Shown here in pieces: positions 6,742 through 62,818 of a stretch of DNA of 64,000 bases. This DNA is from a virus: IMG/VR virus record IMGVR_UViG_3300032053_000016, positions 43,402-107,401 of that record. The stretch is one strand, 5' to 3'. Numbering within the stretch: position 1 is the stretch's first letter; each line of letters begins with the position of its first letter. Below the pieces are notes generated by a model. That model did not search any database and was not told the origin of the DNA. It was given only the letters and a program-made list of their open reading frames with translations. The position numbers were made by a program, and so were the translations under genes.

Positions 6742-6851
6742 GTAGTGAAGCTAACACTCTCACCAGAAACGGTCAGGTAGGTATGACGTGATGACGCTCT
6801 CGTTACTATTGTCTTGTGACGTCACTGTCAAACGTCTGAATAGCTAAGAAC
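6742..6851. promoter_or_regulatory. Divergent intergenic control region
   Basis: These 110 bases separate the minus-strand nuclease operon from the plus-strand tagged-protein pair, so both promoters should lie here or just inside the genes. It contains a perfect 10-base palindrome GTGACGTCAC at about 6818-6827 and TACTAT as a weak -10-like hexamer shortly before it. I cannot define a full promoter. The palindrome is a candidate operator. Confidence 0.35.
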
Positions 6852-13112: not shown

Positions 13113-14098
13113 AAGTACCTTGTTCTTTCTATGGTGCCGCTCAAACTAGCACCGACGAACTCGTCGACAGTCTTCGCGGCATATTCTCCAACGGCCTCAT
13201 GACTCATGAGCGGTCGCAAGGCGGCAGCTCGTTTCCCAAGATCGGTGCGGATCGCTGGATGATCCAACAGATGATCAATGCGTGCTTCGAGCGTCTCGTA
13301 CTCGTAATCAGGCCCAAGTGACGCGTAGTGCTCCCATTCTTTCAGCGGCCAGCAGCAGTTGTTCTGCGGCAAGGCAAGGATGCATTTACCAAGCACTAAG
13401 AACTCGTAGAACTTGCGACTTGATACTCCAATGCCGGGGAAATCGAGACACACCTTCGTGCGATTGATGACGCTGTAGTACTCGTCTGGCGGCATGAGAC
13501 CGTCGTAGGTGACGATGTTGAGATCCTTGCGTCGCTCCTTGATCTCAAGCAGTTTTGCGTAGCCGATGCGACGGTTGGTTGGCCAGTGTTGATTGGTGTT
13601 GCGACTCTTTGGCCAGCAGTACGGCTTGTTGTGATCGTGAACCTTACCGCCAACGAAGAGCACGTCGATGTCCTGTTCGACCTTCGGAAGCGTGTCAGCC
13701 ACCTTGAAGATGCGATCCGGGTCGTTCGTCATGAGGGCAAGCGGGTAGACATCCTCCTTGAACGGGTAGAACACGCGTTGCTCGGACGTGCTCCCATGTT
13801 GAATCTTTAAGACCATGTAGTCTGTGACCTTGTAGTGGTCGATCAGGTTCTGGAAACGCGGCCAGTTGAGCTTGATGTCGAACGGGGTGCCACCCGATCC
13901 GTCGTCGCCGTCGAAGAAGCACAGGAAGTTCTTGCCGTCGCGTTCGTACAAGAAGCACGACCAATTCTTGTTCAACGTGCTGGATGACATGTTCGCGTCC
14001 TGAACCGCTTCAGGAGCGTGCTTCTTGTAGAACTTCGTCAAGAAGTGAACGAAGTGATCGCGATCGTCAATACCGTAACGCGTGATCTTGCCGATCAT
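13109..14098 (-). CDS. Glycosyltransferase, GT-B fold (GT1/exostosin-like C-terminal motif)
   Basis: The 329-residue protein has a typical GT-B C-terminal donor-binding segment: a strand 'KVCLDFPGIG' followed by 'SSRKFYEFLVLGKCILALP' (about 220-250), equivalent to the E-x7-E region of GT4 enzymes. An internal 'IDVLFVGGKV' marks the start of the second Rossmann domain. The N-terminal third is divergent and contains an Asp/Gly-rich loop. ATG start 14098 overlaps the Dam gene's stop by ATGA. It is the most downstream glycosyltransferase of the 28-kb glycan block. Donor and acceptor are unknown. Confidence 0.7.
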   Translation of the reverse strand: MIGKITRYGIDDRDHFVHFLTKFYKKHAPEAVQDANMSSSTLNKNWSCFLYERDGKNFLCFFDGDDGSGGTPFDIKLNWPRFQNLIDHYKVTDYMVLKIQHGSTSEQRVFYPFKEDVYPLALMTNDPDRIFKVADTLPKVEQDIDVLFVGGKVHDHNKPYCWPKSRNTNQHWPTNRRIGYAKLLEIKERRKDLNIVTYDGLMPPDEYYSVINRTKVCLDFPGIGVSSRKFYEFLVLGKCILALPQNNCCWPLKEWEHYASLGPDYEYETLEARIDHLLDHPAIRTDLGKRAAALRPLMSHEAVGEYAAKTVDEFVGASLSGTIERTRYL

Positions 14099-14823
14099 GT
14101 TTCCCTCGTGTAGATCAGCTCTTTGCTGTGGTGGTGGTTGTCCGACTTGCGTCGACTGGTGACAGTTGTCCTAAACGGTTCGAAGGGAAGCCAGTCGGGG
14201 ATTGTGCCTGTCTTGGGACATTCGGCCTCACACACGATGACCTGCCCTCGCAGATCAGCGATTTGACCCGTCAAACGTGTGTAATCTAACGTTTTCGCAC
14301 GGTACTGGTAGTTGTACTGATACGGAGGGTCGACGAACCATGTGCCTTCAACACCAGGTTTCAGAAGCTCGAGGCCATCGACTCGAACCTTCCAGTGCTT
14401 GATGAGGTGGAACTCGCTCGCGACACGACTTCTCGTGTTCTCGGTCCACTGCCCTGACTTGTTTCCCCACGACGAGACCGTCCAGCAGCTGCCGACGTTG
14501 TTCGTTCTCTGCCACGTCTTCATGAGCAGTTCTTGACCACGGTTCATGCCGAGCTCACGCACATCCGTCCCCTCAGGGATGTTGATAGGCATCTCACGGA
14601 TGCTCGCCTCGGTGGCTTCCTCGATGAGCCACCACCACAGCGCGCACACATGCTCGTCAGACTCAGCGAGCAACACGTCTTTGCGATGGTGTCGCAACGA
14701 GTAACCAGCACTGCCCGCGAACGGCTCGATGATCATGTCATGCGTCGGCGCGGGGTAATGCTTTGCTGCTGTCCATTTCGAGCCGAACCACTTGAAGAGT
14801 GGACCTGTGATCGTGTCACTCAT
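14095..14823 (-). CDS. Dam-type DNA adenine-N6 methyltransferase
   Basis: The 242-residue protein has the D12-class (alpha) order. 'FKWFGSKW' (10-17) is the X motif, 'IIEPFAGSAGYS' (31-42) is the SAM-binding FxGxG loop, and the catalytic 'FVDPPYQ' (DPPY motif) follows in the second half. Such enzymes methylate adenine in short sites such as GATC, protecting phage DNA from host restriction or altering gene control. Length is slightly short of Dam (about 270). It sits among sugar genes with ATGA overlaps on both sides. Target site is unknown. Confidence 0.87.
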   Translation of the reverse strand: MSDTITGPLFKWFGSKWTAAKHYPAPTHDMIIEPFAGSAGYSLRHHRKDVLLAESDEHVCALWWWLIEEATEASIREMPINIPEGTDVRELGMNRGQELLMKTWQRTNNVGSCWTVSSWGNKSGQWTENTRSRVASEFHLIKHWKVRVDGLELLKPGVEGTWFVDPPYQYNYQYRAKTLDYTRLTGQIADLRGQVIVCEAECPKTGTIPDWLPFEPFRTTVTSRRKSDNHHHSKELIYTRET

Positions 14824-15485: not shown

Positions 15486-16288
15486 TTTCTCTCCAAAATG
15501 ATGAAGTTTTGATCGTACTTCCCACTCGAGAACCTCCCGCGCTCCAACGCGTTGAACCCCTGCATCTTGTCGATGACGTCGGCGACAACAGGCTGACGGA
15601 TGTGACCGAGTGGGTCGTCAGGTTGAGGCACGCCACCGTGTGGGAGCGCTTTCACAGGGAAGGTGATCAGCACACGCGCGTCTAGACGCGTGATGTCGTG
15701 AAGGTCAGCGATGATGTTGTCTTCGGCAGTCTGATCGACATGCTCCAACACCTCGGTCAACGTCACCACGTCAAACGTTGTGTCGTACGTGTCGCGAAGA
15801 CGATCGAAGCGAACGTCAAAGTGCTTCACATCCACACCAAGCAACGTCAACAGCTTGTTGTAACAGGGTGAGAAGTCGCACGTGTGAAGGTTGAGATCGT
15901 ACCTGTAGTGATCGCGGTAGAGCAAGGCTCCGTGACACCCATGCGCTGGAGCGATGTCAAGCAGCCTTCCTGTATGTGCTGCGTTTGGAAAGAAGCGAGC
16001 GTTAGCGAACTCCGGTCGTGGAAACGTCCTCCCGTTCCTCCACGTTGGGTCGACGAACTCACGTTGAGCCCACACCTTCAACGTGTCGCGTTCGTCTGTA
16101 GAGAGCGCGAAGTACACACTCAAGAAATCGTCGAACTGCGCCTTGATCCTCGCACCCGTCTCAGCGTCCATCGTGGCGAACGCAACGAGTTCATCGTGAG
16201 AGTAAGGGCTCATGGCATCACCGCCCCAGTCGATGCGGCCATTCGCGAGCTCGGAAGCGCCGAGACGCTTGAGAATGTCGTCGTTCAT
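15482..16288 (-). CDS. Class I SAM-dependent methyltransferase
   Basis: The 268-residue protein has a SAM-binding core in the centre: 'GRLLDIAPAHGCHG' (about 107-120) as motif I, then an acidic strand end, and 'FDVVTLTEVLEHV' (about 171-183), the classic post-motif seen in Methyltransf_11/23 enzymes. The N-terminal 100 residues are a helical extension. Substrate is not clear; the location between a sugar methyltransferase and a glycosyltransferase suggests a glycan or lipid-linked sugar. It shares one base with the upstream stop (TGATG). Confidence 0.75.
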   Translation of the reverse strand: MNDDILKRLGASELANGRIDWGGDAMSPYSHDELVAFATMDAETGARIKAQFDDFLSVYFALSTDERDTLKVWAQREFVDPTWRNGRTFPRPEFANARFFPNAAHTGRLLDIAPAHGCHGALLYRDHYRYDLNLHTCDFSPCYNKLLTLLGVDVKHFDVRFDRLRDTYDTTFDVVTLTEVLEHVDQTAEDNIIADLHDITRLDARVLITFPVKALPHGGVPQPDDPLGHIRQPVVADVIDKMQGFNALERGRFSSGKYDQNFIILERK

Positions 16289-17196
16289 CAGAGGTCCTTG
16301 AACATCTTACGGTAGGGTTCCATTCCACCCTTAGAAATCTTAAAGCGTTCCACATCTGGGATGGTTGGAATTGCTTGTGAAACGTCGTCGGCGATCGCAG
16401 AATGATGAAGAACTTGTTCGGCAATGCCGACGGGTGTTGAAACGACAGGAAGACCAATCGCTCCTGCTTCAAGAAAAGCCTGAGGTCCACCTTCGTGCAC
16501 GCTTGTGACAGCGTACAGATCGGCACATTGGTAGAATTCGTTCAAGACTGGTTGTTCTGGTCGTTCGCGATACACATACGGGGTACCTGCAGCAGCGAGG
16601 CGGCCGCAAATATATTGCCTTCTCCATCCTGCCAAAAGCACCAGTGAGTTTGGATCTTGTTGATGTCTCTTGATGAAGAAATCGGCTAAAGCCTCAGGAC
16701 CCTTTTCACGTTTTGGAGACTTTTCGTCGTGTCCTTCTGTATCGCGCTGAGCCGAGAAAACGATATTCGCGTTCAAAGGCAAATCATGCTTCGCTCTCAA
16801 CACTTGAGAATCAGCTGTGCGTCGCCACATAGCATCATTCACCCAATACGGAACCTGTCTTACGGGTTTGTCTGTCAGGATTTCCAGTTGAGCTTTTGCG
16901 CGCGCGTTGTACACGTGATACAAATCGACGTGCTTGTCGCGGTCCATAAATTCTTCTCGCTCGTCAACGCCAAACTTGGAAGGGACGAGGTGGTGGATCG
17001 TGACGACGACCTTTTTGTTCGGCTTGTCTTTCAAAAGATGTTTTGGAATGACTCTCCATCTCCACTCTGAGAAAATCCAAATGATGTCAGCTTGCTCAGG
17101 TCGCATCACCGATGACTTCGGGTTGTGTTTCAACCAATCGTTTGTCAAGGTGTCACAGATCCAGTTTTCATCAGCCGGCAACATATAGATCTTCAT
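16288..17196 (-). CDS. GT4-type glycosyltransferase
   Basis: This is a GT-B glycosyltransferase of 302 residues with the E-x7-E motif in 'EGGPQAFLEAGAIGLPVV' and a preceding 'YAVTSVH' strand. The N-terminal domain is short. I chose ATG 17196 because it overlaps the stop of the upstream GIY-YIG gene by ATGA; an in-frame ATG 15 bases upstream also exists. The gene and the adjacent endonuclease are visibly more AT-rich than the methyltransferase genes downstream, as if they came together (inference). Confidence 0.8.
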   Translation of the reverse strand: MKIYMLPADENWICDTLTNDWLKHNPKSSVMRPEQADIIWIFSEWRWRVIPKHLLKDKPNKKVVVTIHHLVPSKFGVDEREEFMDRDKHVDLYHVYNARAKAQLEILTDKPVRQVPYWVNDAMWRRTADSQVLRAKHDLPLNANIVFSAQRDTEGHDEKSPKREKGPEALADFFIKRHQQDPNSLVLLAGWRRQYICGRLAAAGTPYVYRERPEQPVLNEFYQCADLYAVTSVHEGGPQAFLEAGAIGLPVVSTPVGIAEQVLHHSAIADDVSQAIPTIPDVERFKISKGGMEPYRKMFKDL

Positions 17197-17840
17197 TGAG
17201 CGAACCTCCATTTGAGATTTTGGTGGTGAGGTCGTGTCCCTCGACAGACCGCGCCTATGTGACCTTCGCAGTAGTCGTTCGTACGAGCAGCAACCCTAAT
17301 CGAGGAGTACGCGGCAACGAACACGTCGTCCATCGTGTAACAATCAACGCGACGACACCGTTTGCTGATCTTGCCGTATTGGGGATTGTTCGGACCAAGT
17401 TTCGAATCTCGAAGCTTCACACGCGTCTCGATCGAGATCGGAACCTTTGCTCGACGACCGACTTTCGCGCGCTCGTTTGGATCTTGGTATCGACGTCGCT
17501 GACTCAGACTCAGTTTTCTTCGAGTCTCGACAGTAGGAAGTCCACTTTCCCCACCTTTTGAACCGTTGTATCCGAAATCAGGATCGGCACTTCGACAACG
17601 TTTGATCCAACGTTGTTCAAACGCTTTTGCTTCGCTAAGCGAATCCGTTTCTTCTAGCTGTTGATGTTTCCATGCGTCAACACCGTACTTGTTGATTGCT
17701 CGATGGAAATGGTATTGGCTTCCGGAACGAGCGATCGACACATGTTTGCGCCAACGTTTTTCCATGCCTTTCGACGTCCATCCAATGTAGGATTTTCCGT
17801 TTACAAGACATGTGTGACAGTAAACAACAAACCCTTTCAT
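17193..17840 (-). CDS. GIY-YIG homing endonuclease
   Basis: The 215-residue protein has the GIY-YIG core at the N-terminus: 'VVYCHTCLVNGKSYIGWT' (about 5-22), the catalytic Arg in 'KRWRKH' (about 28-33), and the catalytic Glu in 'EAKAFEQRWI' (about 70-79). The C-terminal half is basic with NUMOD-like DNA-binding repeats ('VETRRKLSLSQRRR', 'IETRVKLRDSKLG') and ends in a helix-turn-helix-like block. The family makes double-strand breaks at specific phage sites and spreads by repair. It lies between a glycosyltransferase (ATGA overlap) and a 23-base gap to a divergent gene. Confidence 0.88.
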   Translation of the reverse strand: MKGFVVYCHTCLVNGKSYIGWTSKGMEKRWRKHVSIARSGSQYHFHRAINKYGVDAWKHQQLEETDSLSEAKAFEQRWIKRCRSADPDFGYNGSKGGESGLPTVETRRKLSLSQRRRYQDPNERAKVGRRAKVPISIETRVKLRDSKLGPNNPQYGKISKRCRRVDCYTMDDVFVAAYSSIRVAARTNDYCEGHIGAVCRGTRPHHQNLKWRFAQ

Positions 17841-17863
17841 GCCCGAAAGGCTAGTTTATCTGT

Positions 17864-18397
17864 ATGGACTTCTGCGAAAAATATACTTTGCTTCACCGCT
17901 TGATGACCGATCACAAACGCGAGAGCTTTGTGGAGACCGGAACGTACGAGGCCAAGATGAGTCTCAAGATGTCGGATCTGACCTCGAACGTACGATCGAT
18001 CGAACTTAGCGAAAAGCTTCACAACGAAGCTCTCGTACAAGTCAAGAAAGCAAAGAAGGACGGCGTAATCACGCTCATCTTGGGGAACAGCGCCGAGCAG
18101 CTGCCGAAGGCTCTAGACGGGGCTTCTAAGCCGCTCGTGTGGCTCGACGCGCACTGGTCTGCTGGGAAAACTGTGCGCGACGATAGTGGCAGCGACACCC
18201 CTATTGTGGCAGAGCTTCACGCCTTGAAGGAATGGGGAGGAGACGCCGTTATCGCAATCGATGACCTCTGGTGCTTCAACGGCAAGAACGGGTACCCTAC
18301 CTTTGAGAGACTACGCGAAATCGTTCGCGAGCTGTGGCCAACGGCAACGCTCACGCGAGTCGACGAGTGCGTCTGGTTCCAGGTCGATCCCGCTTAG
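17864..18397 (+). CDS. SAM methyltransferase-like protein, sole plus-strand gene in the glycan block
   Basis: The 177-residue protein has a 'FVETGTYEAKMSL' loop (about 22-34) similar to the SAM-binding loop of Methyltransf_24-type sugar/macrolide methyltransferases. An acidic strand 'VRSIELSE', 'KPLVWLDAHWS' (about 89-99) and 'AVIAIDDLWCF' (about 127-137) follow, matching the D-A-H and D-D metal-binding positions of that group. It is the only plus-strand gene between 8.3 and 38.4 kb. It diverges from the GIY-YIG gene with only 23 bases between them and ends 4 bases before the converging oxygenase stop. It was probably inserted on its own. Confidence 0.65.
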   Translation: MDFCEKYTLLHRLMTDHKRESFVETGTYEAKMSLKMSDLTSNVRSIELSEKLHNEALVQVKKAKKDGVITLILGNSAEQLPKALDGASKPLVWLDAHWSAGKTVRDDSGSDTPIVAELHALKEWGGDAVIAIDDLWCFNGKNGYPTFERLREIVRELWPTATLTRVDECVWFQVDPA

Positions 18398-35398: not shown

Positions 35399-35568
35399 GG
35401 TGAACCATCGTTCAACTCACGCAGTAGCGCGATGAATTCCTCCAGTGTAGCGTAGTCACATCCGGCTGCGCCCGCAGCCGAATACACTTCATCAAGATCT
35501 GACAGCAACCCATCCACATCTTCGGGCGTGAGGTGGATGTCACCCTTGTCATCTGCGTAGACGTTCAC
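35395..35568 (-). CDS. Small acidic protein
   Basis: This 57-residue gene runs from GTG 35568 (GTGA overlap with the methyltransferase stop) to a TGA overlapping the lipoprotein start. It is acidic and helical with one Cys. The exact fit between neighbours shows it is real. No family is recognised. Confidence 0.62.
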   Translation of the reverse strand: MNVYADDKGDIHLTPEDVDGLLSDLDEVYSAAGAAGCDYATLEEFIALLRELNDGSP

Positions 35569-36341
35569 CAGTCCCAGGTCTCCGACACCACACTCAGCTT
35601 CGCCTTGTTGGCGACAGCGCCTTCACGTGTGAGAAGCAGTTGCCCGTAACGGATCTTCTCGTCTGGCCAGCGACGATCGTCAAAGAAGACGCGACGATCC
35701 ATGATGATGAGCTCACTGCTCACGTCGGCAGGCAGATCGCACTCCTCAAGCGCTTCGTGCACCTGGATCGCAGCGTCGGTGCCCTTGTCCATGTGCCAGT
35801 CGTCGAAGAGGCAGAAGCAGGACCACATGTCTTTCACACCCTCCCAGTCGCCACGGACCGCAGGAGCTGTGTGATCACCGTCGATGAACACGAGATCGTA
35901 CTTGTCGTTCATCTTTGGCAAGACGTCAGCCGACTTCCCACGCGCAACCTGAATGCGACTTGTCCACTCCGTTGGGAACATCTGCGCGATCATCTGCATG
36001 TGTTGATCGTCTAGCGCCGGCTCAACCACCATGACCTGCCCGTCGTTTCCAAGCTCAGCGAACGCCTTCGCGGCGCACAACGCGGAGTAACCGCGGCCGA
36101 ACCCGATCTCAAGGTACGAGTCAAGCTTGTACTTCTTGATGAGCGAGTAGATGAGCAATCCACGCTCGAGGTTGGGTTTGAAGAACGCGCCCACTGTGCG
36201 GAACAGTTCAGAGTTAGGATCACGGAGCTTCTTCGCGGTGGCTTCTCCAATGTAATCGAACTCCCCTAACGAGAGGGATTCAACCGGCATGCTGATCTCG
36301 GCGAGCTTGTCTTTGATGTTGACGTTCTTGTTGGGCTTCAT
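35565..36341 (-). CDS. Class I SAM methyltransferase (Methyltransf_24-like)
   Basis: The 258-residue protein has 'YLEIGFGRGYSALCA' (about 75-89) as the SAM loop, 'QVMVVEPALDDQHMQMI' as the acidic ribose-binding strand, 'YDLVFIDGDHTAPAV' (about 147-161) and 'FCLFDDWHMDKG'. The I-D-G-D-H and D-D-x-H motifs are typical of the TylF/catechol-OMT-like group that methylates sugars or small molecules with a metal ion. ATG start overlaps the large glycosyltransferase stop. Substrate is probably a sugar of the cluster (inference). Confidence 0.77.
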   Translation of the reverse strand: MKPNKNVNIKDKLAEISMPVESLSLGEFDYIGEATAKKLRDPNSELFRTVGAFFKPNLERGLLIYSLIKKYKLDSYLEIGFGRGYSALCAAKAFAELGNDGQVMVVEPALDDQHMQMIAQMFPTEWTSRIQVARGKSADVLPKMNDKYDLVFIDGDHTAPAVRGDWEGVKDMWSCFCLFDDWHMDKGTDAAIQVHEALEECDLPADVSSELIIMDRRVFFDDRRWPDEKIRYGQLLLTREGAVANKAKLSVVSETWDW

Positions 36342-38362
36342 GTGTTACTCGTGACGGTAGTTCGCTTCTTAGGCAAGATCCCGAGGTTTTGTAGTTCTTC
36401 CGGAGGTCTGACGTCCTTCAATGTCATCCACGGTGTTTTTTGTCCAAGATATTTGGAGTGCCAGACGTGACCACCCGTCTTCTCTGCAAGCTCCTTCGCT
36501 CGCTCCTTGATGTCAAGATCGGTGACATCGCTCCACGCTTTGTCAAAGAACATGTTGGTCTCCGCGGTGTCAACGTACTCCTTGCCCTCAAGGACGTTCC
36601 AGTGACGCGTCCAGAAGTCACGGTAGAGGCGGATCTTACGCTCGATGTCGAGCCAGCTGGCGTGGTACACAGACGGCACATTCTGCACGACACGACTGAA
36701 CCAGTCCTCGTACATGAGCAACGCCTTCGGGTCGCCTGTCAACGCTAGACGACGAATCTGCTCCATCTCGTTCGTGAGGAAGCCGAGAAACACGATCGGC
36801 TCGCCGGTGTTGACGTCGATCGGGTCGCAACCGTCTGTGCCAGGCAAGGCAACAAGGCGACCTTCCGCATCCTTGGATCGCAGGTGAACTGGCACGCCGT
36901 GCCCGATTCGCGGGGAGTTACGGCTGACGCGCCACTTCCACGGTGTGACATCGAGTCGCACCTTGTCAAGTCCACCCCAATACTCGACGACTGGGAGTGA
37001 CAGCATAGGGACCGCCTTGGGGAAGTTGCCGACGAGCTCGCGAACCTTCTTCCAGTCCTCCTTACGCACGAGCTCGTCGACGTCCATCTGCCAGACGAAG
37101 TCGCCGGTGCAACGCTTGCGTGCTTCGGCCTTCTGCATGCCGTCGAAGAGGGCGGAACGAGGGTCGGACCAGTCACGCTCGACAACATGAACCTTGAGTC
37201 GCGACTCGTGATTCAGTTCAATCGAATGTTCACCAGGCTCTTTTGCATTCGGCAGCAGGTTCGAACGTTGAAGCGCGTAGAGTTTGTCACGCGTTTCATC
37301 TGTGGATCCCGCATCAACCACCACGACCTCGTCGCAGAAGCCAAGCATCGACTTGATGCACTCCTCGAACGGGTACTCCTGCTTCACGCAGTTGAACGTC
37401 GTCGCGTAGCCGGACAGTGTCACCTCCTTAGCCATCGAGCGCGCCGTTGCGCGCCAGAAGACCGCTGGAGCCCCTCGAAGGTACTCCTCGATGTGCGTCA
37501 GGTCATCAGTGGCGAACCACGATTCTTTGGCGTGTTGAACGTGGTCGTTGAGTCTCAACTCGCAACCGAGCAACTTCGCTTCAATGACGAGGCGAGGGCA
37601 TGTGTCGCCGCCGGCTGGGCAGAACACGAGACCCTTCGCGCCAGCGAGCTTGCGCAGCATTTGATCGTACGAGACGCCGCCGATCAGCTCGTAATCGAGC
37701 TCGTCACGTTCAGCGTTGTACACCGACAGTTCGGTGCCTTTCACCCACGAAGTAGACTGGAGGATCAACCACTTGTCAGACTTGACGATGCTCTCTGATC
37801 GAAGTGCTTCGATCGTGCGAAAGAAGCGGTCGTCGAAGACGCTGGAGAGCACGGTGTTGGGGTAGTCAACAAGGAACGGGAAACGGTCGTGGTAAGTCTT
37901 CTGCTGCTCTTCACTCATCCACCAGGTGTGCTCGGCGGCAGACATGAAGCTGGAGACGACGTTGCCAAGCTGAGTCGTGTGACAGTCACACGGCTTGCTC
38001 TCGTTGAGCTCATGTTTTTCAACCGATCGGTACTTGCAGAACTTGTAATCACACTCCACGATCGAGTAACGAAGGTTGGTCGCGATGGAAGGAAAGAGCT
38101 GGGACTTCAGGCTCGAGTAGTTCCCGAACACCCAGAACTTCTTTGCTCCCTGTTTGATGTGCTCGATCGTGAGCTCTGAACAGAGCATCTTGTGCACCTT
38201 CAAAGGTGCAGCGTCGATCAACGCTTGAAGCGTCAACTCGGCGCCTCCAATGAGTTGCTCAGGGTAAGCGTCCGACACGAAGACGATCTGAGCGTCCTCC
38301 GGAAGGAGCGTGTTGAAGTTAAGTTTCGCGAATAGGGATCCGTCTTGTCTCACGCCTGTCAC
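36338..38362 (-). CDS. Two-domain glycosyltransferase: GT-B-like N-terminus plus GT2 C-terminus
   Basis: The 674-residue protein joins two transferase folds. The N-terminal half has GT4-like elements: 'QLIGGAELTLQALID', then 'GLVFCPAGGDTCPRLVIEAK' with LLGCEL, equivalent to the donor-binding region. From about residue 315 a GT2 domain begins: 'YPFEECIKSMLGFCDEVVVV', then DAGSTDETRDKL and 'DFVWQMDVDELVRKEDW' with the D-x-D site. The C-terminal 200 residues are an additional alpha/beta region with many Trp/Arg. Such fusions let one protein add two sugars. GTG start 38362 is the first gene of the 28-kb minus-strand operon. Confidence 0.8.
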   Translation of the reverse strand: MTGVRQDGSLFAKLNFNTLLPEDAQIVFVSDAYPEQLIGGAELTLQALIDAAPLKVHKMLCSELTIEHIKQGAKKFWVFGNYSSLKSQLFPSIATNLRYSIVECDYKFCKYRSVEKHELNESKPCDCHTTQLGNVVSSFMSAAEHTWWMSEEQQKTYHDRFPFLVDYPNTVLSSVFDDRFFRTIEALRSESIVKSDKWLILQSTSWVKGTELSVYNAERDELDYELIGGVSYDQMLRKLAGAKGLVFCPAGGDTCPRLVIEAKLLGCELRLNDHVQHAKESWFATDDLTHIEEYLRGAPAVFWRATARSMAKEVTLSGYATTFNCVKQEYPFEECIKSMLGFCDEVVVVDAGSTDETRDKLYALQRSNLLPNAKEPGEHSIELNHESRLKVHVVERDWSDPRSALFDGMQKAEARKRCTGDFVWQMDVDELVRKEDWKKVRELVGNFPKAVPMLSLPVVEYWGGLDKVRLDVTPWKWRVSRNSPRIGHGVPVHLRSKDAEGRLVALPGTDGCDPIDVNTGEPIVFLGFLTNEMEQIRRLALTGDPKALLMYEDWFSRVVQNVPSVYHASWLDIERKIRLYRDFWTRHWNVLEGKEYVDTAETNMFFDKAWSDVTDLDIKERAKELAEKTGGHVWHSKYLGQKTPWMTLKDVRPPEELQNLGILPKKRTTVTSNT

Positions 38363-38567: not shown

Positions 38568-39041
38568 GTGATGCCTCCTCGCCGCAAGCTATCCGACGAC
38601 GATCTGGAGTTTCTTGTAAAAGAGATCCACAGTAAACTTGACGGAGTCGTCTTCAACGGCGGGTTCGAAACGTTGGTTTCTAACGTCCAGATCATCCAGA
38701 AGACGCAGGAGGAAATGCTGGTCAAGATGGAGGACGTTCACAAGGTCATCTACGAGCCAGACGATGGTCTCTTCGCTCGCGTGAAGAAAGTGGAGACGAA
38801 CCACGATCACGAGTTAGCACCCCTGCGCCGCGAGGTTGACGATCTCGACAAGTGGCGTGAGAAGCTTCAAGCGCAAGACGGGTTGTTCGAGATGGCAGTT
38901 CAAGCTCACAAGGACGTGAAAGAGTTGAACGCGTGGAAGAAGCGCATCATCGCTCTCGTCGTCGCAGCAGCTAGCAGCACGCTTCTCATGGGTCTGAAGA
39001 CGTTCTACGACCTCATGAAAGACCACGTATCGCTGCACTAA
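38568..39041 (+). CDS. Coiled-coil protein with C-terminal membrane helix
   Basis: This 157-residue protein starts at GTG 38568 or at the adjacent ATG. Residues about 10-125 are charged heptad-like helix, and about 126-147 form one hydrophobic helix (IIALVVAAASSTLLMGLK) near the C-terminus. The topology is a long soluble coiled coil anchored by its C-terminus. It could be a membrane-tethering or holin-like protein; I recognise no family. It leads into the chaperonin-like gene 9 bases downstream. Confidence 0.6.
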   Translation: MMPPRRKLSDDDLEFLVKEIHSKLDGVVFNGGFETLVSNVQIIQKTQEEMLVKMEDVHKVIYEPDDGLFARVKKVETNHDHELAPLRREVDDLDKWREKLQAQDGLFEMAVQAHKDVKELNAWKKRIIALVVAAASSTLLMGLKTFYDLMKDHVSLH

Positions 39042-39050
39042 CATGCTCAC

Positions 39051-40256
39051 GTGAAGTTGAGCAAAGCTTCGATCGTTGAGGGGGTGACGGCCGCGAAAGC
39101 CTACACGGGTGGAGGCGTCACGATCGTTGGCAGAGACTCTCTGTCAAGAGTGGCTGTCGTTGGGCCAATGGGCCTACTGCTGAACACGCGAGCGCCTGAC
39201 GACCTAGATGACGGCGCAGTGCACCCGTTCCTGATGGCGTTAGAGCACGCTCGCGTTAGCGAGACGCAAGGCCCTGGATCGCTACGTGCGAGCGTCGTCT
39301 ACGCTGACAGGCTTCTTCGAGGAGCCTCGCCAGCGTCACGTGAGCTGACTGGTCGCACGTTCACTCGCGCCGACGTCGCGCGCGTGGCTGGAGGCATCCT
39401 CGACGCCGACGATGTTGAGGCGATGACGGTGTTTGTTCAAGACGCAGGCGCTAGTCGGTACATTGTTGAGCGACAGCCGGCGAGAGCAGACAGCGTCGAG
39501 TTCGTTGACAGCTACGAGTTCAAACACACATCGAAATCCATCGATGGCACGGTGTGCATGGACGGCGCTCGAGTGTTGGTCGCAGACGGCTACATCGAGA
39601 CAGTTGCCGAGATCCACGGCGTGCTTGACCGCTGCGCGAAGGAGGGTGAGAGACTGCTTATCTGCGGTCGTGGATTCTCGGATGATGTGATGCACACGTT
39701 GGCCGTGAACCGTTCACGTGGGACATTGGTGGCGTACGCGTTGACCTTCCCGTTCGACGATACGGATGCGAACACGCTGGTTGACGTGGCAACGATCGTG
39801 GGAGGAGACGTTGTTTCCTCTCTCAAGGGCCAGTTGTACTCAGCTGTCGATGTGACCGCGTTGCCGCGCGTTCCATACGCGCGTTTGCGCGGGCAGACGT
39901 TAGATTTCCGTGGCGAAGGCACGGCTGAACGTGCGGCAGCAGTGCTCCTTGGCGTTCAGAGCAAACTCGCTGAGTCCGAAGACCCAGTGCGTTCCATCCT
40001 TGAACGTCGCGTGAGACGCCTCTCAGGGGCATGCATGATCGTGCGCTTGGAAGATGGAGTCAACCACCTCTCACGTGTGGAGGCTTGGGATCTCGCGCTC
40101 AGAAGCCTGCGAGCCGCGACACATGGCGTCGTGGACGCGACTGACAACGAAGCTTGGCCTGGACGCGACGTGGTGCCGTTGAGCTCGGTGGCCATGGCCC
40201 ACGAGACGGCACGCAAGCTCGTTCGAGCGTTAGAGTCGCTGGATTCTTATGTCTGA
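39051..40256 (+). CDS. Degenerate GroEL-like (Cpn60) chaperonin
   Basis: The 401-residue protein aligns by eye with GroEL along most of its length. An N-terminal equatorial piece ends at 'GPGSLRASVVYADRLLRG' (74-91), matching GroEL's G-D-G-T-T-T-A-T-V-L-A helix. The apical domain (about 148-262) includes 'RLLICGRGFSDDVMHTLAVN', then RSRGTLVAY, and 'DVATIVGGDVVSS'. A C-terminal piece 'ERRVRRLSGACMIVRLEDG' with RVEAWDLALRSLRAATHGVV corresponds to GroEL E-R-V-A-K-L-A-G-G-V-A-V-I-K-V and the D398 helix. GroEL Asp87 is lost (GPGSL for GDGTT) and the last equatorial third is missing. ATP-driven folding is therefore doubtful. Start GTG. Confidence 0.75.
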   Translation: MKLSKASIVEGVTAAKAYTGGGVTIVGRDSLSRVAVVGPMGLLLNTRAPDDLDDGAVHPFLMALEHARVSETQGPGSLRASVVYADRLLRGASPASRELTGRTFTRADVARVAGGILDADDVEAMTVFVQDAGASRYIVERQPARADSVEFVDSYEFKHTSKSIDGTVCMDGARVLVADGYIETVAEIHGVLDRCAKEGERLLICGRGFSDDVMHTLAVNRSRGTLVAYALTFPFDDTDANTLVDVATIVGGDVVSSLKGQLYSAVDVTALPRVPYARLRGQTLDFRGEGTAERAAAVLLGVQSKLAESEDPVRSILERRVRRLSGACMIVRLEDGVNHLSRVEAWDLALRSLRAATHGVVDATDNEAWPGRDVVPLSSVAMAHETARKLVRALESLDSYV

Positions 40257-41225
40257 TCAGCTAACAGGCGCGGCGGCCGGCGGAACGTTGCCAGGGCCAA
40301 GCTTGTTCGACGGCTTCGCGGGTACCTGGATGTCCATCAACCCCTTGGCTTTTGCCAAGGCTTGGATCACCTTGTTCGCAGCATCCTTGTCGACCCCTGA
40401 CTGGCTAGCGATGAAGTACGCGATGTCGCTGATCTTCGCAGCGTCAGTTGTAGCGTCAAGGCGTTTGTTGGCGGTTGGAGGAGCGACCTGCGATGGTGTC
40501 GGGGCAATTGCACCCTTTGTGGCTGCCGCTGCTTGTGTTGGAGCAGTCGCGGTCGTGCCTGTGGTGGGAGCTCCGCTTGCTGCCGGGGTTGGAGCAGCCT
40601 GGCCCGCAGTCGCGGGTTGAGCAGTCTGCGCCGGTGGAGCCGGTGGCGCAATTTGTGGAGTAGCAGCGATCTGCTGCGCATTCTTGAAAAGCATTTGCGG
40701 ATTTGTGTTCTGCAGCAACTCTTGAGCGGCTGCCTTGACGTTCATGACGTACGGCAATTTGCCGAACGCTTTCGTCATGATGGCGATCAATTGTTCTTGC
40801 TTCTCGGCAGGAACTAACTCTAACATGGATTTCTGGTTTTCCTGCTCCATGCCAGCTGGGACGAAACCCTTTGCAAGCGTGGGGATGTTTGCCAAACCGG
40901 CACGGATTCCATTCGCAAGATTCACTGCTTTTGCGACAGGATCTCCGCCAAGCCCAAACACATTCTTGATACCTTGCTTCAACCCACCTTGGATGTAGTT
41001 GTGAAGTTCGTTCGTCGCCTTGTCGATGGCCATGTTGAAGAGGTCAGCGTTAGGTGGAACAAGGTTTTTGAGCTTCGCTAATGCATCCTCATACTGCTTC
41101 ATTTTTGCAGGATCAAGTCCAGCCTCCGTGAGTTGGGAAACACCTTCGCGTGGTGTTCGCTGTTCGTAAACGTTCTTGAGCGTGCGATCCTTGAGCCTGA
41201 TCATGTTGGTAACTAGCCGATTCAC
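40257..41225 (-). CDS. Pro/Ala/Thr-rich protein, possible head-associated protein
   Basis: The 322-residue protein starts at GTG 41225, with an ATG seven codons in. It begins with a basic amphipathic helix and carries an L-T-E triplet near residue 33. A helical domain (about 40-185) follows, then a low-complexity Pro/Ala/Thr linker (about 190-260) and a short helical end. The tag-linker-helix build parallels the 6852-7331 protein. It converges on the chaperonin-like gene, stop codons adjacent. Possible packaged or scaffold protein (inference); no family is recognised. Confidence 0.6.
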   Translation of the reverse strand: MNRLVTNMIRLKDRTLKNVYEQRTPREGVSQLTEAGLDPAKMKQYEDALAKLKNLVPPNADLFNMAIDKATNELHNYIQGGLKQGIKNVFGLGGDPVAKAVNLANGIRAGLANIPTLAKGFVPAGMEQENQKSMLELVPAEKQEQLIAIMTKAFGKLPYVMNVKAAAQELLQNTNPQMLFKNAQQIAATPQIAPPAPPAQTAQPATAGQAAPTPAASGAPTTGTTATAPTQAAAATKGAIAPTPSQVAPPTANKRLDATTDAAKISDIAYFIASQSGVDKDAANKVIQALAKAKGLMDIQVPAKPSNKLGPGNVPPAAAPVS

Positions 41226-42253: not shown

Positions 42254-42844
42254 ATGGGACGTTCAACAGTCATCAACGGCAACGCGTCGCTCGGATCTGG
42301 CGACGAATCAACGGCGATCCAACTCGCTGAACGCATCGTGTACCTGGCTGGTGAGGTGAACGAGCAGGCCATCGCTCACGTGACAGCAACGATCATCGCG
42401 TTGGCAAATTTAGACAAAACGTCACCTATCAAGCTCATAATCAGCACGTATGGAGGTTCCGTCGATGAGATGTTTAGCCTCTACGACATCATCAAGTACG
42501 TTCCATGCCCTGTTCACACGATCGCGATAGGCAAGGTGATGTCAGCTGGTGTTCTCCTCGTCGCATCTGGACAGAAGGGAAGTCGACTCATCGGTCGTTC
42601 CACACGTCTGATGATCCACCCGATCTCGGCCGGTCAAGAAGGCACCGTCTTCCAGTTGAAGAACGAACTGTCTGAATCTGTTCGTATGCAAGCTTTGATG
42701 GAAGAATTACTTGCTGCAAACACGAAGATGACAAAGACACAGGTTGCATCTCTCATGAAAAAAGGGTGTGACACGTACATTACTGCGAAAGAAGCAGTGA
42801 AACTTGGCATCGTTGATGCTATCTTTGAAGCACGGGAGAAATGA
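42254..42844 (+). CDS. clpP: ClpP-type serine protease
   Basis: The 196-residue protein keeps the ClpP fold and its catalytic triad. Ser97 is in 'GKVMSAGVLLVASG', His122 in 'RLMIHPISAG' and Asp173 in 'GCDTYITAKEAV'. 'IKLIISTYGGSV' (about 59-70) and 'KLGIVDAI' at the end match the head-domain strands. ClpP forms tetradecamers and degrades proteins fed by an ATPase. Phage versions may act on host proteins or as head-maturation proteases. Its neighbours (Hc1-like, PhoH) are not head genes, so a head-maturation role is uncertain. Confidence 0.88.
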   Translation: MGRSTVINGNASLGSGDESTAIQLAERIVYLAGEVNEQAIAHVTATIIALANLDKTSPIKLIISTYGGSVDEMFSLYDIIKYVPCPVHTIAIGKVMSAGVLLVASGQKGSRLIGRSTRLMIHPISAGQEGTVFQLKNELSESVRMQALMEELLAANTKMTKTQVASLMKKGCDTYITAKEAVKLGIVDAIFEAREK

Positions 42845-43090: not shown

Positions 43091-43507
43091 ATGCCAGCCC
43101 CTAAAGCCTTCCTCCGCGACATGCATGACTTCAAGCTCGATCCCAAGGTGGCCTACACAAAAGGCCACCTTGGGCCTGACGGTCGCATGAAAGACACGAG
43201 AACTAGCGACGCAGTTGAACCTGTTGTCACACAAGTTCTTGAACCGTTCACAAATGTCGATGCCACCGCAATCGATCCAGATGAGCCTATGAGATCTGGT
43301 CTTGTGTACACATCCTCAGATGAAATCGTTACACCGCTTGAGACCGTTGAAGTTCCTACGGTCACGATCAAGGCGTCAACGAAAACGAAAGTAAAGTCGA
43401 GCAAGAAATCGACTGCAGTTGTTACGAATACTACATCTGGAGAAGACAACAGTGGTAAAAACGCGGTCGAATCGGACGATGAGAAGCCAGAGTCTACCGA
43501 AGACTGA
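43091..43507 (+). CDS. Low-complexity acidic protein
   Basis: This 138-residue protein is ordered only near the N-terminus (residues 1-40). The remainder is Thr/Lys/Ser-rich, probably disordered, and ends in a strongly acidic tail. It overlaps the PhoH start by 29 bases. I recognise no family. An overlapping or disordered regulator is possible. Confidence 0.55.
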   Translation: MPAPKAFLRDMHDFKLDPKVAYTKGHLGPDGRMKDTRTSDAVEPVVTQVLEPFTNVDATAIDPDEPMRSGLVYTSSDEIVTPLETVEVPTVTIKASTKTKVKSSKKSTAVVTNTTSGEDNSGKNAVESDDEKPESTED

Positions 43508-44843
43508 TCAGCGTAAGACTTTCATTCTTGACACAAACGTTTTCCTCAGTGACGTCGACGCGATCGGCTCGTTTGGGGACAACGATGTGGTCATTCCACT
43601 TGCTGTCTTAGAGGAGTTGGATTCCAACAAGAAGCGAATGGACGAGGTGGGTCGTAACGCACGTTCGGCATGTCGAAAGCTCGACGCGCTTCGTGACGTT
43701 GGAAGTCTGCATGATTGGGTCCCTCTCCCTAACGGAGGTCGGATCTGTGTTATGCAGAACAAGGCTGACGCGAAATCCATCCTGCCGTCTGAACTCCACA
43801 GCGACAAGAACGATAACCTGGTCATTGCGTGTGCGCTTCAACTCAAGGATAGCGATCCCATCGTTGTGTCGAAAGACATCAACGTTCGTGTGAAATGTGA
43901 TGCACTTGGTGTCATTGCTCAAGACTACTTGAAGCAGCGTGCAGCCGACATGGCTGAGAACCTCTACACAGGCGTGCTTGTCACTCCACTCGACGACGAT
44001 CTTGTCGCCACTGTGTGGGCGACTAGGCAACTAGACATCGACGACGTGCCTCACGACACACATCCCAACCAGATCGTCGTCATCCCACGCAGTGGTGATG
44101 CAGCGACCACGACAGTTGTCCGTCACATGAACGGCAAGTATCGTCTTGTAAAGGAACATCGTGACGTGTTTGGGCTTGAGCCACGTAACAAGGAACAGAA
44201 CTTCGCTCTGGATCTGCTGTTGGATGAGAACGTGAAGCTTGTCACACTGGTTGGCCCCGCCGGATGTGGAAAGACCTTGATCGCTCTCGCGGCTGGGTTG
44301 CAACAGACGCTTGGTGCACATCCGATCTACGACAAGCTCGTTGTGACCCGTCCTATCGAGCCGCTCGGTCGCGACATTGGATTTCTTCCTGGAACATTTG
44401 AAGAGAAGATGGCGCCATGGATCGCGCCGATCCGTGATAACCTTGGCTTCCTACTCTCTCACAAGGGGAAGAGTGGTAAGAAAGGAGCCAAGGATATCGA
44501 AAGCGATCCGTACATCAACATGCTCTTTGAGCAGAAGAAGATCGAGATCGAGGCTGTCGCGTACATTCGTGGGCGCTCCATTCCAAACTCGTTCATCATC
44601 ATCGATGAAGCGCAGAACCTCTCAGTCCACCAACTCAAGACGATCATCACACGCTCAGGTGAGAACACGAAGATCGTTCTCTGTGGTGACGTGCATCAGA
44701 TCGATGTCACGCACATGGACGCCGTCTCCAACGGTCTGTCGTACGTGGTTGAAGCCTTTAAAGACGAAGAAATGGCTGGTCACGTCACCTTGATCAAGGG
44801 AGAGCGCTCAGCATTGGCCACGCGTGCAGCTGAACTGCTGTGA
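43479..44843 (+). CDS. phoH: PIN-PhoH protein (RNase plus ATPase/helicase)
   Basis: I set the start at ATG 43479 (454 residues). Residues about 12-150 form a PIN domain: 'KTFILDTNVFLSD' with its catalytic Asp, 'ELDSNKKRMDEVGRNAR', then 'KNDNLVIACAL'. The C-terminal PhoH ATPase has Walker A 'GPAGCGKTLIALAAG' (about 258-272) and Walker B 'FIIIDEAQNLSV' (near 373), followed by 'TKIVLCGD'. PIN-PhoH proteins act as RNA helicase/RNases. PhoH is common in marine phages, linked to phosphate stress and RNA metabolism. Length matches bacterial PIN-PhoH (PhoH2). Confidence 0.9.
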   Translation: MRSQSLPKTDQRKTFILDTNVFLSDVDAIGSFGDNDVVIPLAVLEELDSNKKRMDEVGRNARSACRKLDALRDVGSLHDWVPLPNGGRICVMQNKADAKSILPSELHSDKNDNLVIACALQLKDSDPIVVSKDINVRVKCDALGVIAQDYLKQRAADMAENLYTGVLVTPLDDDLVATVWATRQLDIDDVPHDTHPNQIVVIPRSGDAATTTVVRHMNGKYRLVKEHRDVFGLEPRNKEQNFALDLLLDENVKLVTLVGPAGCGKTLIALAAGLQQTLGAHPIYDKLVVTRPIEPLGRDIGFLPGTFEEKMAPWIAPIRDNLGFLLSHKGKSGKKGAKDIESDPYINMLFEQKKIEIEAVAYIRGRSIPNSFIIIDEAQNLSVHQLKTIITRSGENTKIVLCGDVHQIDVTHMDAVSNGLSYVVEAFKDEEMAGHVTLIKGERSALATRAAELL

Positions 44844-56999: not shown

Positions 57000-57773
57000 G
57001 TGGCGCTGATCTACCGGATCGACAGTAAGGAGACCGGCTTGACGTACGTCGGGCAGACTGTCTTGCCGCTTGACGAGCGGTGGAAGGCTCACGTCGCGTA
57101 CGCTTGGTGGGTCATTCGTCACATGCCGGAGAAGGACACCCACTTCGCGAGGGTGATCAGAAAGCACGGCGCGAAGACGTTCGTGCCGAGCGTTATCGAG
57201 GAGACGGCGGTCGAGTTGCTGAACGAGCGTGAGATCCACTGGGTCGCAGAGCTTGGGACCTTTGAGAACGGATACAACTCGACGAGGGGTGGCGGCGGCC
57301 GAAGCGGGTACGAGTGCTCCGAGGTGACGAGGGAGAAGTTGCGTCAGGTCCAGTTGGGTAGGAAACACACTGACGAGACGAAGGCGAAGATCTCGGCGAA
57401 GAAAAGCGGCGTGAAACAAGATCCAGCGATTGTTGAGAAACGAGCTTTCGCAAATCGAGCCGCCGGGCATAAGCGTTCTGATGAGGTCAAGCAAAAGATT
57501 CGTGCGTCGAACGTTGGACAGACGCGAACGCTTGAAATGAGAGCTAAGATGGCAGCATCGGCCAAGGGGAGAGTCCTGTCAGAATCGACAAAGAAGAAAC
57601 TCGGTAAGCGCGTTAGACAACTGACGAAGGAAGGCGTCCACGTTCAGACGTTTGATACGCTCACTGAAGCAGGCCAAGCGACAGGCTATTCGAAGGGCGC
57701 CGTATGTAACAACATCCGCGACCCGAAGCGTTTCCCGCTGAAGGACGTCATCTTCGAGCACGTGACTACGTAA
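57000..57773 (+). CDS. GIY-YIG homing endonuclease with NUMOD3 repeats
   Basis: The 257-residue protein starts at GTG 57000. The catalytic domain shows 'VALIYRIDSKETGLTYVGQT' (1-20), 'DERWKAHV' with the Arg, and 'ELLNEREIHWV' with the Glu. 'NSTRGGGG' follows. The C-terminal half has repeated NUMOD3-like blocks ('TREKLRQVQLGRKHTDETKA', 'SDEVKQKIRASNVGQ') and a NUMOD1-like end. It sits between two virion genes, and a short 13-codon reading frame lies in the 50-base gap before it. Confidence 0.88.
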   Translation: MALIYRIDSKETGLTYVGQTVLPLDERWKAHVAYAWWVIRHMPEKDTHFARVIRKHGAKTFVPSVIEETAVELLNEREIHWVAELGTFENGYNSTRGGGGRSGYECSEVTREKLRQVQLGRKHTDETKAKISAKKSGVKQDPAIVEKRAFANRAAGHKRSDEVKQKIRASNVGQTRTLEMRAKMAASAKGRVLSESTKKKLGKRVRQLTKEGVHVQTFDTLTEAGQATGYSKGAVCNNIRDPKRFPLKDVIFEHVTT

Positions 57774-61436: not shown

Positions 61437-62411
61437 ATGATCAAAGAAATCAAGATTCTTCCTCGTATTGCTAAAGGCGCACCTGGCCTTCCTCCTCGAC
61501 AGCTCATCCTCGAATGCGATCATTGTCACTCGACATTTGAACGTCTTTACGCGACCGATCGCGCGAAGCAAACCAAACACTTCTGCTCTTCAACTTGCGT
61601 CTACGCTGGCCGTGCTGCTAGTCCGCTTCACGGTCGGAAGACGACCCGATCTTGCTCGCAATGCGGGAAAGAGATCACACGAGCAACTTCACACATGGAG
61701 AATCAAGACATCCTTTGTGATCGTGAATGCTTCAAGTTGTGGAAGGTGGCAACCACTCCGCCTGAACAAGTAGCTGCGATGTCAACCCCTGAAGCTCGCG
61801 CGAAGTCGAAGGCTACCCTCATCAAGCAACGTTCGGCACCAGGGTACGTCCACTCGATGCTTGGTCACGTCCATGGAGACGAATCACGAGCGAAGATGCG
61901 CGAATCAGCCGTTGGCAAGCACGACGGAGCTCTCAACGGGATGAAGGGGCGAAAGCATCGCGAGGATTCGAAGGAGAAGATGTCCGACGGTCACTCGCAG
62001 AACCTTGTCGATGGCAAAGGGTTTGTCTACGGTGGCAATGGACACATGAGTGGGTGGCACACGTCATTCAAGGGCAACAACGGCGAGAGGATGTTCTACC
62101 GCTCGTCGTGGGAGAGGGACATGATGCTCCACCTGGACTCGAACGACGACGTCCCTTCGTACGGGTACGAGTGCGTGCGCATTCCGTACTACGACATTGA
62201 CAACCACAAACGCAACTACGTCCCTGACTTCCTCGTCACGCACGCGAGCGGCCGCCGCGTCCTCGTCGAGATCAAGCCGAAGCAGTTCCTCAACAACGAG
62301 AAGACGAAGCTCAAAGCTGAGGCAGCTCGCGCCTACTGCTCCGCTAACGGCATAGACGTCTACGAGATCCTCACAGGAGAAGACCTACGATCAAGACAGA
62401 TCGTCAAGTGA
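61437..62411 (+). CDS. Zinc-finger/NUMOD3/PD-(D/E)XK homing endonuclease
   Basis: The 324-residue protein has two zinc knuckle regions (LECDHCHSTF..FCSSTC and SCSQCGKE..LCDREC, about 22-95). NUMOD3-like DNA-binding blocks follow ('ESRAKMRESAVGKHDGALNG', 'KHREDSKEKMS'). A C-terminal restriction-like nuclease domain shows 'FYRSSWERDMMLHLD' (about 222-236), 'YVPDFLV' and 'VLVEIKPKQF' (about 273-282). The nuclease domain is homologous to the stand-alone protein encoded just downstream (GTGA overlap). It probably homes into a site near that gene (inference). Confidence 0.82.
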   Translation: MIKEIKILPRIAKGAPGLPPRQLILECDHCHSTFERLYATDRAKQTKHFCSSTCVYAGRAASPLHGRKTTRSCSQCGKEITRATSHMENQDILCDRECFKLWKVATTPPEQVAAMSTPEARAKSKATLIKQRSAPGYVHSMLGHVHGDESRAKMRESAVGKHDGALNGMKGRKHREDSKEKMSDGHSQNLVDGKGFVYGGNGHMSGWHTSFKGNNGERMFYRSSWERDMMLHLDSNDDVPSYGYECVRIPYYDIDNHKRNYVPDFLVTHASGRRVLVEIKPKQFLNNEKTKLKAEAARAYCSANGIDVYEILTGEDLRSRQIVK

Positions 62412-62818
62412 AGAAGATCAAGAAGCCACGACGCAGGAAGCGTGTCTCCCGTCGAGCGAAACGCGGCACCCACACCTCACCGAAGGGTGGCACGTTCACT
62501 TACAGGTCGGGATGGGAGCTGAGGTACGCGCTCTACCTCGACGCGGACCCGGACGTGCTCTCGTACCGTTACGAACCGTACAGCATACCCTACGTGTCGA
62601 ACGTGAGGACGGGCAAGGTGCGCCGGTACCACCCGGACTTCGAGGTGTTGAGATCTGACGGCACCCTGATCCTCGTGGAGATCAAACCAAAGAAGAAGAT
62701 GACGCTTCTCAAGAACGTGAAGAAGTTCGGTGCTGCGCAAGCCTTCTGTCTCTTGCGTAGCATGACGTTTTCGGTGATCACAGAAGTTGACTTGAAGGCT
62801 CTAGGTTTGATGAAGTGA
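62408..62818 (+). CDS. Stand-alone PD-(D/E)XK nuclease
   Basis: The 136-residue protein has a basic N-terminus (KKPRRRKRVSRRAKRG) and a nuclease domain: 'FTYRSGWELRYALYLD' with Glu, 'RRYHPDFEV' with P-D, 'ILVEIKPKKK' with E-x-K. These are the three catalytic motifs of this PD-(D/E)XK subgroup, shared with the products at 61437 and 9940. It is fused by GTGA overlap to both the homing endonuclease upstream and the RuvC-like resolvase downstream, so a role in replication/recombination is likely. Confidence 0.78.
   Translation: MKKIKKPRRRKRVSRRAKRGTHTSPKGGTFTYRSGWELRYALYLDADPDVLSYRYEPYSIPYVSNVRTGKVRRYHPDFEVLRSDGTLILVEIKPKKKMTLLKNVKKFGAAQAFCLLRSMTFSVITEVDLKALGLMK

What the first reader, a model, noticed from the sequence alone, without database searches (positions are those of the whole stretch)
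39051..40256. Shrunken GroEL-like chaperonin that has lost a key ATPase residue
The protein follows GroEL from the N-terminal equatorial helix through the apical domain to the helix bearing Asp398, but the GDGTT motif (Asp87) reads GPGSL and the last third of the equatorial domain is missing (401 versus about 548 residues). Phage chaperonins are known in a few jumbo phages, usually full-length. A version kept open without hydrolysis might hold phage proteins or modify host GroEL rings.
Basis: partly seen in the sequence, partly recalled or inferred. Interest (0 to 1): 0.85.

Follow-up and report, generated by a model that had tools for sequence, protein, structure and literature searches.

The report
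Phage protein keeping only GroEL's apical domain
A virus of bacteria carries a conserved gene whose middle is the protein-gripping (apical) part of the folding machine GroEL, with no recognisable part of GroEL's ATP-burning, ring-forming motor; it may be a natural, motor-less 'mini-chaperone', but its function is untested.

Summary
The 401-aa ORF at 39051-40256 is a real gene, conserved at 72% identity end to end with identical start and stop in a second phage (dN/dS 0.09), and it is related to GroEL. The relationship is demonstrable only for residues ~139-338, the apical domain plus its edges (GroEL ~175-385; E 6e-17 with the two-sequence profile). Residues 1-138 and 339-401 show no similarity to GroEL above shuffled controls. 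What is firm is that no recognisable chaperonin ATPase/ring domain exists in this protein or elsewhere in the 107-kb contig, and no Cpn10 either. Every other complete viral chaperonin sampled was ~525-560 aa, nearly all with an intact GDGTT motif. In an apical-domain tree the query pair is separated from all sampled GroELs by a saturated branch. Best explanation: a phage-adapted, ATP-independent apical-domain binding protein (natural minichaperone-like holdase or assembly factor), probably co-transcribed with a small coiled-coil/single-TM protein. The homology is firm; the function is inferred. It is not a member of the Cpn60 family by that family's own criteria. New variant of a known kind; moderate interest.

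The parts
39051..40256 (+). 401-aa GroEL apical-domain protein (GTG start, TGA stop)
   Evidence: ORF; homology; conserved full length in L002, dN/dS 0.087
39465..40064 (+). aa 139-338: region with significant similarity to GroEL (E. coli ~175-385), i.e. apical domain with the adjoining intermediate-domain strand
   Evidence: hmmsearch of A2 profile vs PDB, 6.1e-17, aa 139-337 to T. thermophilus Cpn60 175-383; hmmsearch with a viral-GroEL HMM 61 bits for aa 151-335; 80% identical to L002 over aa 151-330
39603..39644 (+). aa 185-198, counterpart of apical helix H (GroEL Leu234 -> His189, Leu237 -> Leu192)
   Evidence: ungapped apical alignments; predicted helix 185-198
39681..39719 (+). aa 211-223, counterpart of apical helix I (Leu259 -> Met214, Val263 -> Ala218, Val264 -> Val219, Asn265 -> Asn220, Arg268 -> Arg223)
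   Evidence: ungapped apical alignments; predicted helix 211-223
39051..39464 (+). aa 1-138: N-terminal flank, no detectable similarity to any family
   Evidence: not above shuffles; no PDB match at E <= 5; no credible Pfam match
39270..39284 (+).
40065..40253 (+). aa 339-401: C-terminal flank, two predicted helices, no significant similarity to GroEL's C-terminal half
38568..39041 (+). 157-aa partner gene 9 nt upstream, one hydrophobic segment near the C-terminus (aa 127-145); likely same transcript; 70% identical in L002 with the same spacing
   Evidence: weak holin-family match phrog_689 E 0.005
40257..41225 (-). convergent 322-aa gene whose stop abuts the chaperonin-like stop, so the ORF cannot continue as coding sequence of this gene; same arrangement in L002
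   Evidence: no family match

Best explanation
The gene encodes a phage-adapted protein built round a GroEL-type apical (polypeptide-binding) domain, without a recognisable chaperonin ATPase/ring module. The most likely mechanism is ATP-independent binding: helices H and I of the apical domain form a groove that holds one or a few phage (or host) client segments, keeping them soluble or presenting them for assembly, much as engineered GroEL minichaperones do. The short flanks (138 and 63 aa) either form a small, degenerate base or contact a partner, possibly the membrane-anchored 157-aa protein encoded 9 nt upstream. Shown: gene reality, purifying selection, apical homology, absence of recognisable equatorial motifs, absence of another detectable Cpn60 or Cpn10 in the contigs. 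Inferred: binding activity, lack of ATP use, client, oligomeric state, partnership.
For: Apical homology E 1.3e-14 to 6.1e-17; apical part is the best-conserved part between the two phages (80% vs 62% N-terminal and 72% C-terminal). No chaperonin equatorial profile matches anywhere in six frames of the 107-kb contig or the L002 stretch; no Cpn60/Cpn10 family match in the contigs. dN/dS 0.087 over the whole ORF. Predicted apical fold well supported (pLDDT mostly 82-89 over aa 171-280) with Foldseek hits only to chaperonins at the top. Precedent: isolated GroEL apical domains are monomeric, have no ATPase, bind substrates and prevent aggregation (PMC6803692; PMC4973282 abstract).
Against: Groove residues needed by E. 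coli GroEL are partly lost: the Tyr199-Phe204 segment is deleted or replaced and Leu234 is His, so generic GroEL-like binding may be weak. 201 residues of flank are conserved, more than a bare minichaperone needs, so they do something unexplained. No experiment, no known client. Only two distinct sequences of the family were found.
Confidence: 0.45

Rival explanations
1. A highly diverged but still ring-forming chaperonin: the flanks are a degenerate equatorial/intermediate domain that assembles a small ring, with altered or no nucleotide use.
For: The apical domain sits between an N- and a C-flank as in GroEL; MAFFT, hhalign and the predicted secondary structure give a GroEL-like order (N-terminal helix, possible hairpin VAVVGPMGLLLN, helix, GxG, helix... 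final helix). Foldseek TM up to 0.63 to a full GroEL-type subunit.
Against: Flank similarity is not above shuffles; none of GroEL's LGPKG, KDG, GDGTT, GGG or NAAT nucleotide motifs is recognisable; the model was steered by 40 GroELs, and without them it has pLDDT 35.
Confidence: 0.22
2. A decoy or modulator of host GroEL/GroES: it joins host rings, or competes for substrate or GroES, to redirect host folding during infection.
For: Phages do retune host chaperonin: T4 gp31 and RB49 CocO are GroES substitutes (PMC9598537). An apical domain is the part that contacts GroES and substrates.
Against: Equatorial contacts that hold GroEL rings together are not recognisable. GroES- and substrate-contact residues (Tyr203, Phe204, Leu234) are lost. 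The two sequences differ at 28% of positions.
Confidence: 0.13
3. A virion or membrane-complex component that uses the apical fold only as a protein-protein interaction module, working with the 157-aa coiled-coil/TM neighbour (for instance in lysis or in envelope-associated assembly).
For: Two-gene unit conserved in both phages with 9-nt spacing; partner has one C-terminal hydrophobic segment and a weak holin-family hit; in Vibrio phage Va1 a full-length chaperonin gene lies between tail sheath and tail tube genes; the phage EL chaperonin acts on endolysin (PMC9598537).
Against: Holin match is weak (E 0.005); no endolysin found beside it; no virion proteomics.
Confidence: 0.15
4. Pseudogene, assembly or frameshift artefact of a full-length chaperonin.
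For: Short length alone.
Against: Same length, same start and same stop at 72% identity in an independent contig, dN/dS 0.087, substitutions concentrated at third codon positions (100/49/241); no equatorial remnant in any frame nearby.
Confidence: 0.02

Closest known systems
Group I chaperonin GroEL/Cpn60 (E. coli GroEL; T. thermophilus Cpn60 4v4o)
   Same: Apical domain, about 27% identity over the aligned apical region; conserved pattern TLxVNxxRG, helix H/I region, D-I/V-A-T-x-x-GG, G-x-G, RVxxLxG
   Different: 401 vs ~548 aa; no recognisable equatorial/ATPase domain; Tyr199-Phe204 segment lost; no Gly-Met tail; scores 46.5 bits against a 582-bit TIGR02348 cut-off
Phage chaperonins (EL gp146, OBP gp246, AR9 gp228; Vibrio phage Va1; phrog_5725)
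   Same: Phage-encoded GroEL relatives, some without a co-chaperonin gene (PMC7185714, PMC9598537)
   Different: Those are full-length (~525-560 aa) ATPases forming rings; all complete viral chaperonins sampled here other than the query pair are of that length and nearly all carry GDGTT
Engineered GroEL minichaperones (isolated apical domain, e.g. residues 191-376)
   Same: Apical domain without an ATPase; ATP-independent binding is the proposed activity
   Different: Engineered fragments have no conserved flanks; here 201 flank residues are under selection, and the groove differs
Variant chaperonin GroEL3 of Chlamydia (NF038369)
   Same: Diverged GroEL paralogue (E 2.4e-9 to its model)
   Different: Model is 506 positions long; the query matches only positions 199-390

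Membership tests
Group I chaperonin (GroEL/Cpn60) | Sequence similarity in the apical domain | tested here: met
   E 6.1e-17 over aa 139-337; hhalign probability 98.2%
Group I chaperonin (GroEL/Cpn60) | Equatorial ATPase domain with GDGTT, GGG and related motifs | tested here: not met
   No GDGTT; flanks not above shuffles; equatorial-only profiles match nothing in six frames
Group I chaperonin (GroEL/Cpn60) | Curated family cut-off (TIGR02348, Pfam PF00118) | tested here: not met
   46.5 of 582.1 bits; no whole-protein Pfam hit, apical part 10.8 of 34.3 bits
Group I chaperonin (GroEL/Cpn60) | Three-domain subunit fold | tested here: inconclusive
   GroEL-like model only with a GroEL-rich alignment; two-sequence model uninformative
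Group I chaperonin (GroEL/Cpn60) | Seven-membered ring and ATP-dependent folding cycle | not testable with these tools
   needs protein
Group I chaperonin (GroEL/Cpn60) | Co-chaperonin Cpn10/GroES encoded with it | tested here: not met
   No PF00166 match in G000, L001, L002 contigs; contigs may be incomplete and some phage chaperonins lack one
GroEL minichaperone (works like) | Apical domain present without a recognisable ATPase domain | tested here: met
GroEL minichaperone (works like) | Hydrophobic groove residues (Tyr199, Tyr203, Phe204, Leu234, Leu237, Leu259, Val263, Val264) | tested here: inconclusive
   Leu237 and Val264 kept, Leu259 -> Met and Val263 -> Ala conservative, Leu234 -> His, 199-204 lost
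GroEL minichaperone (works like) | Monomeric, ATP-independent client binding | not testable with these tools
   needs protein

The most novel reading that the evidence does not exclude
A naturally evolved stand-alone apical-domain chaperone: a phage has discarded the chaperonin motor and kept the polypeptide-binding domain under selection on new flanking domains, as a dedicated ATP-independent binder for a phage client or a membrane-anchored partner.
Probability: 0.35. Interest if true: 0.72.

Novelty: new variant of a known kind. Interest (0 to 1): 0.5.

Why it matters
Chaperonins are treated as ring ATPases, and isolated apical domains as laboratory constructs. A phage gene kept under purifying selection with only a recognisable apical domain would show that the binding half can have a life of its own, and gives a small, testable system for what the apical domain does without the ring. 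It would also widen the range of phage chaperonins, which so far are full-length.

Tried and rejected
AlphaFold with only the two family members: pLDDT 35, uninformative. Searches for intermediates or further members: eight scans of IMG/VR (with the protein, two-sequence, mixed and apical-only alignments, neighbouring genes and the partner gene) and two scans of GTDB genomes found only the two contigs L001 and L002; the phage collection gave only full-length or bacterial GroELs at 24-27% identity. The motif-based scans favour sequences close to the query or with standard GroEL motifs, so more distant short members could be missed. Considered and rejected: split gene (no equatorial half elsewhere); pseudogene; group II relationship (all matches are group I). 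A gapped profile alignment with low gap costs was too fragmented to use for residue mapping; the script also stopped on a mis-numbered residue. A tree on apical domains shows only a saturated branch, so the donor lineage cannot be named. Literature searches for a natural truncated or apical-only phage chaperonin found none in the held library, which does not cover most subscription journals.

Full report
What is there. The window is bases 43402-107401 of a 107,401-base virus record. At 39051-40256 (+) lies a 401-codon ORF with a GTG start. It follows a 157-aa ORF by 9 nt, and its stop abuts the stop of a convergent gene; the same arrangement occurs in L002, a 132.5-kb contig. The two proteins are 72% identical over all 401 residues without a gap; L001 carries an identical copy. 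Substitutions fall at codon positions 1/2/3 as 100/49/241 and dN/dS is 0.087 (synonymous sites nearly saturated), so the whole ORF is under purifying selection; the apical part is the most conserved (80% against 62% and 72% for the ends).

Homology. Whole-protein Pfam finds nothing, but phmmer against the PDB gives T. thermophilus Cpn60 at 1.3e-14, and every strong match is a group I chaperonin. A profile of the two family members reaches 6.1e-17 over aa 139-337 = Cpn60 175-383. PHROGs phrog_5725 'chaperonin groEL' matches at 1.5e-15, and NCBIfam GroEL models at 1e-8 to 1e-14 but far below their cut-offs. hhalign against 41 GroELs gives probability 98.2%, aligning aa 71-361 with GroEL 83-412, but with column confidence 1-2 outside the apical part.

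How far the homology reaches. I tested the flanks apart. With an HMM of viral GroELs plus E. coli, aa 151-335 score 61.5 bits, while aa 1-95, 1-150, 96-165 and 336-401 score at the level of shuffled copies. Global profile alignments gave z = 8.0 for the apical part against 1.4, 0.5 and 1.1 for the flanks of the window protein, and lower for L002. Ungapped blocks, including the GPGSL block (p = 0.58) and the C-terminal helix (p = 0.50-0.69), were not significant. So the GDGTT-to-GPGSL replacement is a plausible alignment, not an established substitution, and Asp398 cannot be assigned. The flanks match no other family. They may be a degenerate equatorial/intermediate domain (the order of predicted helices is compatible) or something else.

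Is the motor elsewhere? No. Six-frame searches with full GroEL, N-terminal equatorial and C-terminal equatorial profiles over the contig and L002 stretches find only this ORF; Pfam Cpn60 and Cpn10 find nothing in G000, L001 or L002. These contigs may be incomplete.

Control: other viral chaperonins. Among viral chaperonin ORFs fetched with a mixed alignment and with an apical-only alignment that does not depend on GDGTT, the complete ones other than the query pair are about 525-560 aa; in the apical-only set all 13 carry GDGTT. Shorter ORFs in the first set were cut by contig ends or had GroEL C-termini or GDGTT consistent with broken or partial full-length genes (for example L044, L060). In an apical-domain tree the query pair is separated from all other rows by about 8 changes per column, a saturated distance, so its donor cannot be named.

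Structure. Without GroELs in the alignment AlphaFold2 gives pLDDT 35. With 40 viral GroELs it gives mean 69.5, with most apical blocks between 82 and 89 over aa 171-280, and poor values (about 30) at aa 21-50. Foldseek's top matches are all chaperonins (1.6e-21; TM up to 0.63). The apical fold is thus supported; the base is not independently supported.

Binding groove. From the ungapped apical alignments: Leu237 -> Leu192, Val264 -> Val219, Asn265 -> Asn220, Arg268 -> Arg223 kept; Leu259 -> Met214 and Val263 -> Ala218 conservative; Leu234 -> His189 changed; the Tyr199-Phe204 segment deleted or replaced. That these residues bind substrate and GroES in E. coli GroEL is established knowledge, not tested here. 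The groove persists in altered form; canonical GroES binding looks unlikely (inference).

Mechanism. I favour an ATP-independent apical-domain binder acting on one or few clients. Isolated apical domains ('minichaperones') are monomeric, lack ATPase and bind substrates (PMC6803692). Phage EL, OBP and AR9 chaperonins act without a co-chaperonin and on phage endolysin (PMC9598537; PMC7185714), so client-specific phage chaperonins have precedent. The neighbour protein (single C-terminal hydrophobic segment, weak holin hit at E 0.005) is a candidate partner only because of its conserved position.

Verdict. Observation partly confirmed: real GroEL relative, shortened, without a recognisable ATPase. 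Interpretation partly supported: the 'lost residue' and 'mixed ring' parts are not. By the curated cut-offs and the missing ATPase domain it is not a Cpn60 member; it may work like a minichaperone. Novelty: new variant of a known kind.

Noticed in passing
window 295-38362 (mainly minus strand): Long run of minus-strand ORFs; those tested include group 1 and group 2 glycosyltransferases and an O-methyltransferase (3150-4370, 4346-5599, 16288-17211, 35565-36341, 36338-38362), suggesting a large glycan-modifying island.
   Followed up: partly
window 57000-57773, 61437-62411, 62408-62818: GIY-YIG/NUMOD3 endonuclease, and two adjacent ORFs with TnsA-like endonuclease N-terminal domains, the first also carrying a NUMOD3 motif: possible homing endonucleases.
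   Followed up: no
window 42254-42844 and 43419-44843: ClpP-like protease (PHROGs: head maturation protease families) and a PIN-PhoH (PhoH2-type) protein, both conserved in L002.
   Followed up: no
L095 (G000:C1:1-20000): 6324-7541 -, 10299-11378 +, 13466-14359 -, 17058-18161 +: The same contig encodes RtcB RNA ligase, a second RNA ligase, a Thg1-like tRNA-His guanylyltransferase and a sigma-70 factor: an unusual RNA repair set.
   Followed up: no
L007 (OR846590.1 4944-11489): A record labelled Enterococcus phage has a full-length GroEL next to other ORFs (216 aa Rex-like and 217 aa membrane protein by eye) that look like host chromosome; probably bacterial sequence in a phage record.
   Followed up: no
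L013 451-1629 +: Short viral contig with a related PhoH gene (41%) encodes a protein with a tubulin/FtsZ-like glycine motif (GGGGGTGSA), judged by eye.
   Followed up: no
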